Below are positions 1 through 4,495 of a stretch of 64,000 bases of DNA, one piece after another (positions within the stretch are counted from its first letter, which is position 1; every line of letters begins with the position of its first letter). The stretch spans positions 1 to 64,000 of the forward strand of contig NZ_JAAGOH010000007.1 of assembly GCF_010499455.1 (NCBI RefSeq), read 5' to 3'. Source of the DNA: Ideonella livida. Lineage in GTDB: Bacteria; Pseudomonadota; Gammaproteobacteria; Burkholderiales; Burkholderiaceae_C. Both the position numbers and the translations under genes were made by a program. Under the pieces are notes generated by a model. It was not told the DNA's origin, did no database searches, and saw nothing but the letters and a program-made list of their open reading frames with translations.

Positions 1-132
1 CTCTACAACCAGTACCTGCCACAGAAGGCGCTTGGGCATGAGACGCCCGTGCAGGCGCTCAAACGATGGCGGATCTCACACCCGCACTTGTTCCTCAAAA
101 TGATCAGGAATCATCCGGGACCTGACACTTAG
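1..132 (+). mobile_element. 3' end of an IS481/IS3-like transposase gene (partial)
   Basis: Reading from base 1, an open frame of 43 codons ends in TAG at 130-132. It begins LYNQYLPQKALGHETPVQAL and ends PGPDT, which matches the C-terminal tail of DDE-type integrase-core transposases (IS481/IS3 kind), where a 'N..RPH..LG..TP..' stretch follows the catalytic Glu. The catalytic residues lie outside the window. The last ~30 bases overlap the 3' end of the opposite-strand NTPase gene, so the terminal inverted repeat of the element probably lies around 104-130. The exact IS family is inferred from this tail only. Confidence 0.7.
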
Positions 133-3100
133 CCACCAATGCGGCAGGAGCCAACTTGGCCAGCAGCGCGTCCGCCCGAGTCAATGCATGTCGAGTTCCT
201 TTGCCATCCGTGTAGTCCAGCACGGCGTGGACTTGGGGAGCCACTTGTGCAAGCAGTCGCCGTGCATCCTTCGGCGCGACTTCCACCAAAAAACCGATCG
301 CGTCGAGGGTATTGTTCAACGTCGGGTCTTTGCGATGAGAGAAGCCCGTCGCCAACTCCCAAGCTTGCCGGCAGAGTTCACGCGCTGGTGTTTCCAAGCC
401 ATGAGCAACCGAAATCCCACATAACTGCAACGGCGTTTGCAGATGGACGCTGGTCTCTTGCCGCACCTCCGCATCGCACAGCTCGCGCTGGGAACGCACG
501 AACATGGCAGCGGCCTCATCTGACATCCTCGTCAGCAGCCCCGCAACGTACTGCTCGCGAAACGATGTGGCATCGAACCACTTGAACGATGTGGCTGCGG
601 CAAGCGTTACCTCTGTCAAGTCGGCTTCAACAGCATGGCCCAACAGGATGCTGCCGTGACGGATATCGCAGGCCACATGGTGCAGCGCAGCCCGAAAGTC
701 CTCTGCCACCGACTGCCGGTCGTAGCTCTGTCGGAAATGCCTGAACTCCGCCGGTTCCAGCAGTGCAAAGAGATCGTGGAAGTCCACGAACTGGCCATGC
801 CACCAGCGATTTGCCACCTCTGCTGCGATTCCCGAGAGTTCGTTGAGGAAATCCGTGACGTTCTCTCGGTCTGTATAGACCGGCGCGGGTACAAAGTTGA
901 ACGTAGCCTGCCCTTCAGCCAACATGCACAGGCTCAAATGCACGGTGCTGAAAAACCAGTGATGCACCAGCCTTGCAAGATCCCGCTTGCGCTCGCTGTA
1001 GTCGGCTCCCAGCCAGTCTATTGGGATCGGAGCATTTAAGGTCACCCCAGCCCGCGTGTAAGCCACCTGCACGGCGGCAACAAAGGGGGTTCTGGCAAGT
1101 GCATTGAAATCGGGACGCTCGACGACGCTCACATTGACCTGCGCCGCAGCCCGCAGGCAAGCATCGCTAACCGCATGCTTGCGTCGTCCGTCGCTCATCG
1201 AAGCCACGAGCGACATCAACTCGTCAAGTTGACCTTCTGCGGCCATCAGCCGTACCAACGGCAACCAAGCTTCAGAATGAGCCTCTGTCACGAGCCGTTT
1301 GAGCTCTTCAGGCGCAGCCCCCACCGTGCCCAAGCGTGCAAAAGCACTCACCAGAAACTTGAAGGCATCTAAACCGTTGCCTGTAGCGTACTCACCTGAG
1401 AACCGACTTGCCCCTCGAAAACGCCGCAGCGCCTCTTCACCGCATGACTCGGCCACGATATGGTCACCGCGCGCCCGCAAAGCCAGACCCAGTGCTGCCA
1501 CGAGCTTGATATCCGTCTCGTGCCTGGAGGCCACTGCCTCCTGAATCACCCCATCGTCTGGCGCCAGCGTCCACGTATATGAGGCCAGCCGGGCCATGTC
1601 TTCGTCCGGCATCTGAACTTGACTGCCCTCGACCATGCGGGCTTTGAGATGCTGGAGGCGATAGGCCTGCGCGAAGTCAGCCCGGTCTAGCGCGGCAGCC
1701 ACGGCATCGCTGATCAACGTATCAAATAACGCCTGCGGATATCCCTCCTCCAGGCGCAGCAGAACCCAGTCTCGGGTCAGACCCGCAATCAGATGGCTTG
1801 GATTGCCAAGCTGAGCTTGAACCGTCCACAGCCAGTTCACCCTCAAGGCATTGGGTGCCTGTGTCTCCAGCCACCGTGCAACCGCCGGCCTCAGCGTGGC
1901 AATGCGGTCAGCGTAGCCATCGGTAGAACGTACATAAACAGCCAAGCTCTCGTGAAAGACTTTCAACCCAGCGGCCGACGAATGAAGCAGATGCTCAATC
2001 TTCTCGATTTCGGGCACTGCCAGTTTCATCGCGGTCGCGATCTCGCCAAACGCTGTTCGGGGCCAGAAAAACGGGAAAGCACAAACCAGCCGCAACGCAT
2101 CCTTTTGGCTGGGTGAAAGCTGCCCCCACAACGTCCCGTAATAAAACTTTGCGTCTTGGCTCAGATCGCCCGTCAGTTGCTCAACGTCCCACCGAGTGAC
2201 CCTGCCACCAGCCAGCACCAGCGCGGAGGTCGCGTAGATGACGTGCAGTGGATGACCATTAGTTCTTGCGCGCAGGACCGATGCAGCCCTTTGCAACTCT
2301 CCCTCTGCGAAAGCCACGTGCGCGGCGCCCGGTTGCTCAGTTTCTGCGGGCTCGCGTCCAGTGCTTAGACGACCGGACTGCACCGTCTGACGTAAGTACG
2401 AGAGAACGGCGTCGCCAGACATGGCTGGAAGCGTTTTCCAAGTCGCCTTTGGTGCCGCGATCAACAAATCCGTCGGCAGTTGGGCGTCATCTACCGGCTG
2501 CGTGCCCACAAGCAGAACCATGTTTTCAGGGCACGGTACCAACTGTGCAAATACGTCCTCCAGCGGTTTCTTGTCTCCTGCGTTGATACGCCAGACGTGG
2601 TCGAGCCCATCCAAGATCAGCACGAAGGGCTTGTTGAGTTTCTTGTAGTGCGCAGCGGCAGCCTCCAACAACGCCCGCAGATTGCCGCCCGGATCTGAAA
2701 CGTCAGGATGAAGTCGCCGGATCTGTGATCGGATCGACTCCTCAACGATGTAGCTATGCACACGATCCCGGCCACGCTCTGTTGTGGACAGAAAGTAGTG
2801 GTGGCGAGCCGTTGGGATGTCTTTGTCGGCGAGTGTGTCGCACAGCGCGCTGAGGTAGGTACTCTTGCCGCGACCAGGCGGGCCGGTCAGAACGATGGCC
2901 TTGCCGACGGAATGCAGTGTGTCCTCGACGAAGGTGTCGTGGAAGTCAACATCGGGCACCTCATAGCCCTTGGGGACGGCAAAGTCCTCCGGCAGCGGTG
3001 CAGGCGGCGTCGCTTGAAGAATCGCACGGAGGTCTGGCAACGTGATCCAGCCTGATGGTGGGGGCGAGTTCTTCTGTGTTGCCCAGTTCAGGGCGTTGTC

Positions 3101-3706
3101 CTGTAAGACGGCGATTCCCTCCGGCGTGCCATGAGCACGTAGCCGCGCGTTGACTTCGTCCTTAAGCGTCTCGTAGCCCTTGTCGCTGTGCATGACTTGC
3201 AGCCGCCCGAAGAAGTCTGAACAATTGTTCTCGCCACCGAGCTCGGCAATGAGCGCTGTGCGCATCGGGTCGGGAACCTTGGCGAAATCAATCTTGTCCC
3301 CGGTCAGGCAGGCTTCGATGTCGGCATCCGGTCGCCGGTTGGTCAGGAGAGAAAGCTGGCCGACGCGTGCTGGATCCAGCGATCTGTAGGCGTCAAACCA
3401 CTTCTTCAGCATCGACCGAGATCGCGCCGTTTTGCCCGACCTCTCAAGCAGCCAATCCCAGGACAGCAGGTGTGCATCAGGGTTGGGCGTGAACTTGACC
3501 TGCTTGAGGTCTTGCAGGCCGTCCGTGCGCTCGACCACGATGTCGTCCAGACCTGTCGGCGCATCCGTCTCAACATCGCACTCGAACTTCACCTTCACGT
3601 AGCGGCTCGGTGCATCCAGCCAGTCACACAACACCCGCAGCCCTTGCCGGTTCTGGTAGATGTAGCCAGCAGCAGTGATCGCGGTGTGCTTGATGTTCTC
3701 AGTCAT
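104..3706 (-). CDS. STAND-type P-loop NTPase with N-terminal DUF4297/Cap4-like nuclease domain (Avs-like defence protein, probably truncated)
   Basis: A 1,200-residue protein. Residues 10-75 hold a GYIYQNRQGL segment, Glu42 in VKFECD, Asp54-Asp55 in LDDIVVE and QVK at 69-71. This fits the PD-(D/E)xK-type dsDNA nuclease domain of DUF4297/Cap4. Residues 268-290 carry a Walker A motif (GPPGRGKS, 275-282) and 361-370 a Walker B (LILDGLDH, Asp366). This is the NACHT/STAND arrangement. From about 560 on the protein is leucine/alanine-rich and helical, as expected for a target-sensing repeat region. Known relatives (Avs2-type and other STAND nucleases) bind a conserved phage protein, oligomerise and degrade DNA. 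That role here is inference. A GGAAGGGG ribosome site precedes the ATG. The last codons (CQVPDDS and stop) lie in the terminus of the neighbouring transposon, so the native C-terminus has probably been lost. No partner gene is visible. Confidence 0.72.
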   Translation of the reverse strand: MTENIKHTAITAAGYIYQNRQGLRVLCDWLDAPSRYVKVKFECDVETDAPTGLDDIVVERTDGLQDLKQVKFTPNPDAHLLSWDWLLERSGKTARSRSMLKKWFDAYRSLDPARVGQLSLLTNRRPDADIEACLTGDKIDFAKVPDPMRTALIAELGGENNCSDFFGRLQVMHSDKGYETLKDEVNARLRAHGTPEGIAVLQDNALNWATQKNSPPPSGWITLPDLRAILQATPPAPLPEDFAVPKGYEVPDVDFHDTFVEDTLHSVGKAIVLTGPPGRGKSTYLSALCDTLADKDIPTARHHYFLSTTERGRDRVHSYIVEESIRSQIRRLHPDVSDPGGNLRALLEAAAAHYKKLNKPFVLILDGLDHVWRINAGDKKPLEDVFAQLVPCPENMVLLVGTQPVDDAQLPTDLLIAAPKATWKTLPAMSGDAVLSYLRQTVQSGRLSTGREPAETEQPGAAHVAFAEGELQRAASVLRARTNGHPLHVIYATSALVLAGGRVTRWDVEQLTGDLSQDAKFYYGTLWGQLSPSQKDALRLVCAFPFFWPRTAFGEIATAMKLAVPEIEKIEHLLHSSAAGLKVFHESLAVYVRSTDGYADRIATLRPAVARWLETQAPNALRVNWLWTVQAQLGNPSHLIAGLTRDWVLLRLEEGYPQALFDTLISDAVAAALDRADFAQAYRLQHLKARMVEGSQVQMPDEDMARLASYTWTLAPDDGVIQEAVASRHETDIKLVAALGLALRARGDHIVAESCGEEALRRFRGASRFSGEYATGNGLDAFKFLVSAFARLGTVGAAPEELKRLVTEAHSEAWLPLVRLMAAEGQLDELMSLVASMSDGRRKHAVSDACLRAAAQVNVSVVERPDFNALARTPFVAAVQVAYTRAGVTLNAPIPIDWLGADYSERKRDLARLVHHWFFSTVHLSLCMLAEGQATFNFVPAPVYTDRENVTDFLNELSGIAAEVANRWWHGQFVDFHDLFALLEPAEFRHFRQSYDRQSVAEDFRAALHHVACDIRHGSILLGHAVEADLTEVTLAAATSFKWFDATSFREQYVAGLLTRMSDEAAAMFVRSQRELCDAEVRQETSVHLQTPLQLCGISVAHGLETPARELCRQAWELATGFSHRKDPTLNNTLDAIGFLVEVAPKDARRLLAQVAPQVHAVLDYTDGKGTRHALTRADALLAKLAPAALVAKCQVPDDS

Positions 3707-3802
3707 AGTGGGCCGCCCCTTCCGCTAAAGAACCTCTGAATCGCCCTGGCAATCACGGAAGTCAGACCGACGCCAGCAAGTCACCGCGAACGCGATCAGC
3801 CA

Positions 3803-4495
3803 TCAGCCCGCCCCAACTGCCTGATGCTCCCGGCAATACTGAAACCCACCAAACCGGCCTTCTTGGTTCCAGCAGAACTTGCCTTCGCCAAAGCTGATCT
3901 TTTGCCCGCAGGTCACGCACACCAGCTTGCGTTTGAGTGATTCGTCGGGGGCTGCCGCCACAAGAGCCACGGCGGGCGCAGCGTGCGGTGCCGGGGCGGG
4001 CGCAACCGGCGCGGGTCGTGCGCCGGCCGGTTGGGGCGCGGCGGCACGGGCAGCGGCGGGTGTCGCGGCCGGCGTTGGTTTCGGCGTTGGAGTCAGTGCC
4101 GAAGCCTTGGGCTTCATCCACTCTGGCAGGTCCAGCGGGTTGGTGGGGCGATGCTGGCGCATCAGCTTTTCGGCCATGGCCCGCACGCTGTCCATGCTGT
4201 TCAGGTTGACCAGGGCATTCAGCAGGGTCATGCCGGTCATGTTCTTGTCGACATAGGCATTGCGCCAGGTGCCGATTTGGTCGGCTTTGATCACGTTGCG
4301 GGTGTCGAAGGCTTTGGCATCCGGGCGGTGGATCAGGGCCTTGGGGTGCAGCAGCACGGCGTGATGAAAGGTGGGCTTGAAGCCGGCGCGGCTGTTGATG
4401 GCCAGTTGCGCCAGCAGGCGGGAAAAGATCCGCTCGTGCCGGCGGCTTTTGTCGTTGGCAGCCTTCAGCAAGGGTGAGGCGATGGTGCTTGCCAT
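3803..4495 (-). pseudogene. C-terminal remnant of a NERD (nuclease-related domain) family protein with zinc-ribbon tail
   Basis: A 230-codon frame. Residues 20-80 (RIFSRLLAQL, GFKPTFHHAVLL, VIKADQIG) resemble the C-terminal half of NERD nuclease-like proteins common in proteobacteria. A low-complexity Pro/Ala linker (about 137-185) leads to a Cys-rich end (CVTCGQKISFGEGKFCWN then YCREHQ) that resembles the zinc-ribbon tail of the same family. Full-length relatives are, from memory, about 300 residues or more and start with the catalytic NERD part. That part is missing and nothing upstream (4496-4602) encodes it. No good ribosome site precedes the ATG. It is therefore probably a 5'-truncated relic, though expression of a short protein cannot be excluded. 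It lies beside the NTPase gene in the same accessory patch. Confidence 0.55.

What the first reader, a model, noticed from the sequence alone, without database searches (positions are those of the whole stretch)
104..3706. IS-truncated STAND nuclease (Avs-like)
The 1,200-residue protein combines a DUF4297/Cap4-like nuclease head with a Walker A/B STAND core and a helical C-terminus, as known Avs-type anti-phage sensors do. It is the only plausible defence gene in the window. Its helical region has no clear family repeat, so it may recognise a target not yet described. Its final codons (CQVPDDS and stop) come from the adjacent transposon end, so the native C-terminus is probably cut.
Basis: partly seen in the sequence, partly recalled or inferred. 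Interest (0 to 1): 0.75.

Follow-up and report, generated by a model that had tools for sequence, protein, structure and literature searches.

The report
Transposon-cut nuclease sensor, half a pair
The gene looks like a transposon-broken copy of a little-known bacterial immune sensor that probably cuts DNA when it detects a virus; intact relatives are longer and come with a second gene, which in some bacteria is fused to the sensor.

Summary
ORF 104-3706(-) encodes a Cap4-like nuclease head, a NACHT/STAND core and a helical region, cut by an IS481-family element; its last seven codons are IS sequence. The rest of the gene starts contig C13 of the same genome, after the other IS end, with a 6-bp target duplication (GCTAAG).

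Intact split relatives are 1450-1494 aa, about 300 residues beyond the cut. A second gene (465-489 aa) overlaps their stop codon; it is intact in this genome and annotated elsewhere as a 'DMT permease'. In six intact loci the two are one protein of 1907-1940 aa, and on a 15-row tree the split/fused state changes at least twice. The second gene is therefore most simply the last part of the sensor.

Sequence homology to Avs1b covers the STAND core only; the best structural match is Avs3. Library scans covered neither sensor nor partner. Of 7 loci whose neighbours were scanned, 3 lie beside Avs2 or a defence reverse transcriptase. Of 24 loci examined, 9 are broken.

Best reading: a new variant of nuclease-STAND immune sensor, abortive by DNA cleavage, with a sensor that may be split. 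The ligand is unknown; nothing was tested functionally.

The parts
1..127 (.). IS481-family element end: 3' end of its transposase gene (+ strand reading) and terminal repeat TGTCAGGTCCCGGATGA (read on the - strand at 111-127); the contig begins inside the element
128..133 (.). target-site duplication copy (GCTAAG on the - strand), the last two native codons before the IS; the second copy is on contig C13 at 128-133
104..3706 (-). truncated nuclease-STAND gene, 1200 codons as read: 1193 native + 7 IS-derived
3017..3706 (-). Cap4/LmuA-like PD-(D/E)xK nuclease head, about residues 1-230; E42, D54/D55, Q69xK71 conserved
2372..2914 (-). NACHT/STAND NTPase core, about residues 265-445; Walker A PGRGKST, Walker B region DGLDHVWR
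128..2371 (-). helical arm and start of the helical sensor, residues 446-1193; intact relatives continue to 1450-1494 and then into the partner gene or domain

Best explanation
The gene is a recently IS481-broken copy of an uncharacterised two-gene anti-phage receptor. Intact form (inferred mechanism): the N-terminal Cap4-like nuclease is held inactive by a NACHT/STAND NTPase. The roughly 750-residue helical C-terminus together with the separately encoded (or fused) roughly 480-aa partner forms one sensor. A phage protein bound by this sensor triggers ATP-dependent oligomerisation, the nuclease heads assemble, and cell DNA is cut, giving abortive infection. The partner is probably made by coupled translation from the overlapping start codon and acts as the terminal segment of the sensor. 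Shown: the domains, the pairing, the fusions, the IS insertion and purifying selection. Inferred: defence, ligand binding, oligomerisation and the partner's role. In this genome the first gene loses about its last 300 residues and its coupling to the partner, so it is most likely inactive.
Against: No functional test. Pfam Cap4_nuclease is below its cut-off in the window protein, and 4 of 11 members list it at E <= 0.5, best 8.7e-4. AlphaFold of the partner failed (mean pLDDT 33.0) and the receptor model is weak (49.7), so the partner's fold is unknown. Rmsd to Avs3 is 20.8 A over 255 residues. Of 10 neighbour proteins from 7 loci scanned, 4 (in 3 loci) are strong defence matches; the three of L005 matched nothing and those of L012, L030 and L006 only weakly or in part. 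No relative in 50,697 phage records, and one IMG/VR contig from four scans. The partner could instead be a regulator or inhibitor.
Confidence: 0.72

Rival explanations
1. The partner is not part of the sensor but an inhibitor or immunity-like regulator that holds the nuclease-STAND protein off; phage removes it.
For: A separate overlapping gene in 9 of 9 intact split loci. 9 of 24 loci are broken, which suggests a cost of carriage.
Against: Six intact loci have it as the C-terminal part of one polypeptide, and the fused/split state changes at least twice on the tree, which fits a structural segment better.
Confidence: 0.15
2. It is simply a diverged Avs1 or Avs3 with the same ligand (phage large terminase).
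For: HMM-HMM match to Avs1b residues 172-692 (probability 97.7, E 1.6e-12), and by my arithmetic about 1,200 residues of sensor after that point in both. Rank-1 structural match is Avs3 bound to terminase. Avs1-3 target the large terminase subunit according to a passage in PMC12724215.
Against: No detectable similarity of sensor or partner to Avs1b or Avs2. The head matches nucleases, whereas Avs1b has a trypsin-like protease (PMC12799240 passages). The PADLOC scan of the window protein listed no Avs type other than Avs1b at E <= 1 (that the library holds Avs3 models is recalled). Avs3 and Avs4 sequences were not compared directly.
Confidence: 0.3
3. A non-defence NACHT protein, or decaying mobile-element baggage without current function.
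For: 9 of 24 loci broken; rare, 3 of 300 genomes of the order, own included.
Against: dN/dS 0.098-0.22; defence-gene neighbours at 3 of 7 loci scanned; conserved catalytic residues.
Confidence: 0.08

Closest known systems
Avs1b (AVAST type 1)
   Same: STAND core and following arm are homologous (our profile 218-748 to Avs1b 172-692, probability 97.7); the three Avs1b fetched are 1912-1924 aa, like our fused forms
   Different: Avs1b acts through a trypsin-like protease and a separate MBL-fold nuclease gene (PMC12799240 passages); ours has its own nuclease head, and no sensor or partner homology is detectable
Avs3 (8dgc, Avs3 bound to PhiV-1 terminase)
   Same: best structural match of the window protein, across part of the head and the STAND core
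   Different: no Avs3 profile match in the PADLOC scan; the sensor was not comparable with our weak model; a separately encoded terminal sensor segment is not known to me for Avs3 (recalled)
bNACHT25/bNACHT32 (clade 6)
   Same: N-terminal PD-(D/E)XK nuclease, central NACHT; DNA degradation on activation (PMC12169576 passages)
   Different: different C-terminal module (NCH1 in bNACHT25/32); no partner gene is mentioned in the passages seen
Cap4 / LmuA nucleases (CBASS effector, Lamassu)
   Same: head domain
   Different: here the head is followed by a STAND receptor; the SAVED domain of Cap4 and the SMC-type partner of LmuA (both recalled) were not seen here (the SAVED-named model matches over residues 8-129, the nuclease part, only)

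Membership tests
STAND/NACHT receptor | NACHT domain with Walker A and B | tested here: met
   PF05729 42.1 bits vs cut-off 26.7; 11 of 11 homologues; motifs invariant
STAND/NACHT receptor | tripartite effector-NTPase-sensor layout | tested here: met
   nuclease head, NACHT core, helical C-terminus (the helices rest on a weak model); that the C-terminus senses is inferred
Cap4-like PD-(D/E)xK nuclease | curated family score | tested here: inconclusive
   Pfam Cap4_nuclease 12.5 vs 26.2 bits in the window; PADLOC LmuA 1.1e-9; best member 8.7e-4
Cap4-like PD-(D/E)xK nuclease | catalytic acid/acid/QxK set | tested here: met
   E42, D54/D55, Q69, K71 invariant in 11 of 11 and in the window; that these are the catalytic residues is recalled family knowledge
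Avs1 | Avs1b equivalog score | tested here: not met
   17.3 bits vs cut-off 1500
Avs1 | STAND core homology | tested here: met
   hhalign 97.7, E 1.6e-12
Avs1 | trypsin-like protease head with MBL nuclease gene | tested here: not met
   head matches nucleases, no protease family listed; no other neighbour shared by more than 4 of 19 sources
Avs2 | profile similarity to Avs2 | tested here: not met
   hhalign probability 1.6 to a two-row Avs2 alignment; no PADLOC Avs2 match
Avs3 | nuclease + STAND fold | tested here: inconclusive
Avs1-3 | sensor binds phage large terminase | not testable with these tools
   needs binding or co-expression assay
bNACHT clade 6 | NCH1 C-terminal module | tested here: inconclusive
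   no such module listed by Pfam at E <= 1; whether Pfam holds a model for it was not checked
Two-gene split-sensor receptor (this family) | partner gene present and intact in the window's genome | tested here: met
   L020:1000-2442, 480 aa

The most novel reading that the evidence does not exclude
A bacterial NLR-type receptor whose pathogen sensor is bipartite: the terminal, ligand-contacting or gating segment is a separate subunit in some lineages and fused in others, so that activation requires assembly of receptor and partner, and the partner can be exchanged independently of the receptor.
Probability: 0.4. Interest if true: 0.62.

Novelty: new variant of a known kind. Interest (0 to 1): 0.47.

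Why it matters
The papers seen here describe STAND immune sensors in bacteria as one protein with effector, NTPase and C-terminal sensor (passages). A family in which that sensor is naturally split and re-fused would offer a ready-made way to map which part senses phage and which part gates the nuclease. It also exposes a partner gene that databases call a drug transporter.

Tried and rejected
AlphaFold of the partner from 3 sequences failed (pLDDT 33.0), so no fold search was made with it. Solved-structure sequence searches gave nothing convincing (best E 0.52-0.95). Phage records: no match. Viral contigs: one fused relative from four scans. Tn7 ends around the glmS insertion: a 20-base candidate next to glmS had no close second copy in the window (best 6 mismatches). 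An empty glmS site was not found: none of 13 genus loci matched the window flank or the island in the 1329-1500 bases downstream of glmS that were held. The flank gene 3803-4495 had no match at E <= 1e-20 in 20 other genomes, 12 of them of the same genus. A Pfam scan of the 43-aa IS fragment gave nothing, and the C13 side of the IS (128 bases) matched no plasmid. Of the 8 IS-end matches in the genome, two whose flanks I listed (L042, L044) showed no IS481 transposase that I recognised. Two attempts to get Avs3 representatives by family number returned Avs2, so Avs3 was compared by structure only. The 1879-aa STAND of G521 was set aside: it matches over the STAND core (98.4) and weakly over 225 further columns (48.0), not the partner. 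Rows dropped from the 24-locus tally: L032 (178-aa head only), plasmid hits H19 and H20 (short), 2 unlisted plasmid rows, C. metallidurans records H5 and H6 (not opened; H3 and H4 counted as one), G521. The 15-row tree left out broken copies other than the window, and L067. Literature: ten searches listed no paper whose title or abstract start describes this pair; passages of five papers were read. Papers that mention a C. metallidurans locus tag I had guessed were not opened. Two relevant papers (PMC11564622, PMC10028730) are not held, so 'undescribed' is not established.

Full report
WHAT IS THERE. The window begins at base 1 of contig C7 of its genome. ORF 104-3706 on the minus strand reads 1200 aa. 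The head matches nuclease models of PADLOC: LmuA over residues 4-268 (E 1.1e-9) and two Cap4-type effectors over 8-129 and 41-129 (E 2.9e-9 and 2.1e-8). Residues 271-442 are a NACHT domain (PF05729, E 1.1e-10, 42.1 bits against a cut-off of 26.7). The rest is helical in a weak model. E42, D54, D55, Q69, K71, the Walker A core PGxGKST and DGLDHVWR are invariant in the 11 homologues and in the window with three relatives. Bases 1-127 have three plasmid matches over their whole length; the annotated one (71.7%) is an IS481 family transposase, the other two (76.0%, 70.9%) carry no feature. The last native codon is 128-130; the tail CQVPDDS comes from the IS end.

THE OTHER HALF. A search with a fused relative found residues 1155-1449 of that query at C13:89-964 of the same genome. 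C13 ends its IS part with TCCGGGACCTGACA, followed by GCTAAGTACGAGG; the window side reads GTGGCTAAG and then the IS. GCTAAG is thus duplicated (6 bp), and the frame matches relatives (ALVVKYEEHVDAG in L007). I compared the halves apart and did not join them. After the C-terminal remnant (stop at C13:1000) an intact 480-aa gene starts on the overlapping ATG (C13:1000-2442), followed by glmS in the opposite orientation (2613-4454). dN/dS against Paracidovorax L005 is 0.115 (N part), 0.098 (C remnant) and 0.125 (partner); for the intact Azonexus pair it is 0.176, 0.137 and 0.22. Decay has therefore barely begun. The IS end pattern, with up to 2 mismatches, occurs 8 times in the genome (3 exact), three of them within 250 bases of a contig start.

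FAMILY. Receptor homologues: 3 of 300 genomes of the order, own included; with a fused query, 4 of 398 genomes of the phylum, one of them (G521) a different STAND; 3 loci in genome contigs; 22 of 72,556 plasmid records, 14 of them covering 80% or more of the query; 0 of 50,697 phage records. With the partner profile, 3 of 369 genomes of the class matched, own included, each beside or inside a receptor gene or its remnant; 14 of 72,556 plasmid records matched the partner. Intact split receptors are 1450-1494 aa, with a 465-489-aa partner overlapping the stop codon: L005, L007, L008, C. metallidurans (L009/L033), L011, L012, L013, L027, L039. Intact fused forms of 1907-1940 aa: L010, L022, L030, L031, L034, L067. 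L034 is an IMG/VR contig with a serine recombinase; its reading frame begins at the contig's first base, so its start is not certain. In an all-against-all of ORFs from 19 sources, outside receptor and partner nothing had relatives in more than 3 other sources (ABC ATPases, Y-family polymerases). On a 15-row tree the split/fused label needs at least 2 changes: fused L034 groups with split L027 (100/99), and with split L039 as one side of the midpoint root. The program warns of long branches, so the exact events are uncertain.

DEFENCE CONTEXT AND COST. I scanned 10 neighbour proteins of 7 loci against PADLOC. Next to L007 and L028 are Avs2 genes (E 0); next to L031 are a UG17 reverse transcriptase (2.1e-163) and an RT-associated SLATT protein (3.5e-54). 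The L030 neighbour has a LmuA-like start (2.1e-8), those of L012 and L006 match weakly, and the three of L005 match nothing. Of 24 loci examined, 9 are broken: window (IS481), L004 (internal deletion), L006, L063 and L066 (apparent frameshifts), L064 (IS26), L065 (ISKpn26), L028 (IS3), and L029 (a remnant directly after an IS6 copy). Sequencing error could explain some frameshifts. Frequent inactivation fits a costly or self-harming system but does not prove it.

COMPARISON AND VERDICT. It works like an Avs/bNACHT receptor. It is a STAND receptor by tested features. It is not Avs1 by the curated score and not Avs2; Avs3 membership is unresolved. Ten literature searches listed no description of this pair, but two key papers were not held and no supplements could be read, so it may be listed somewhere. 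I rate it a new variant of a known kind. The window copy itself is broken; the interest lies in the split/fused sensor.

Noticed in passing
L020:2442-2620 and L050-L062: The pair lies just downstream of glmS; none of 13 genus loci compared matches the window flank or island there. By eye their sequences after glmS differ from one another and some (L050, L051, L062) carry short repeated motifs like Tn7-type ends. This seems an integration hotspot.
   Followed up: partly
L021:764-15877 and L022:7926-16916: Two STAND genes (1879 aa in G521, fused homologue in G314) both sit beside a gcvP-like gene (named by eye); the first also lies near TnsB/TnsC-like genes, suggesting a Tn7-like site at gcvP.
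   Followed up: partly
L064:4001-8234 and L011:8001-13864: K. pneumoniae strain E16KP0218 carries two copies on two plasmids; one receptor match stops at residue 1182 (L007 numbering) just before an IS26, about 20 residues from where IS481 cuts the window copy (about 1201), and its partner lies elsewhere on the plasmid.
   Followed up: partly
L008:12488-13864, L009:12491-13867, L011:12422-13864: The partner gene is annotated 'multidrug DMT transporter permease'; in 15 members scanned Pfam lists only one chance-level hit (NosL, E 0.1).
   Followed up: yes
L029:7458-9389: A Piscirickettsia plasmid carries a 643-aa remnant (end of receptor plus partner) directly after an IS6 copy, apparently from a fused form.
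   Followed up: partly
L028:15326-15868: A stray receptor fragment (matches receptors of 6 other loci) lies among IS3 copies on the Moraxella plasmid, away from the truncated receptor.
   Followed up: partly
window:3803-4495: 230-aa ORF beside the island with no Pfam match and no relative at E <= 1e-20 in the 20 other genomes searched, 12 of them of the same genus.
   Followed up: partly
L030:2216-5014: A SEC-C protein near a fused receptor has a LmuA-like N-terminus (E 2.1e-8); a SEC-C gene is also annotated near L007.
   Followed up: no
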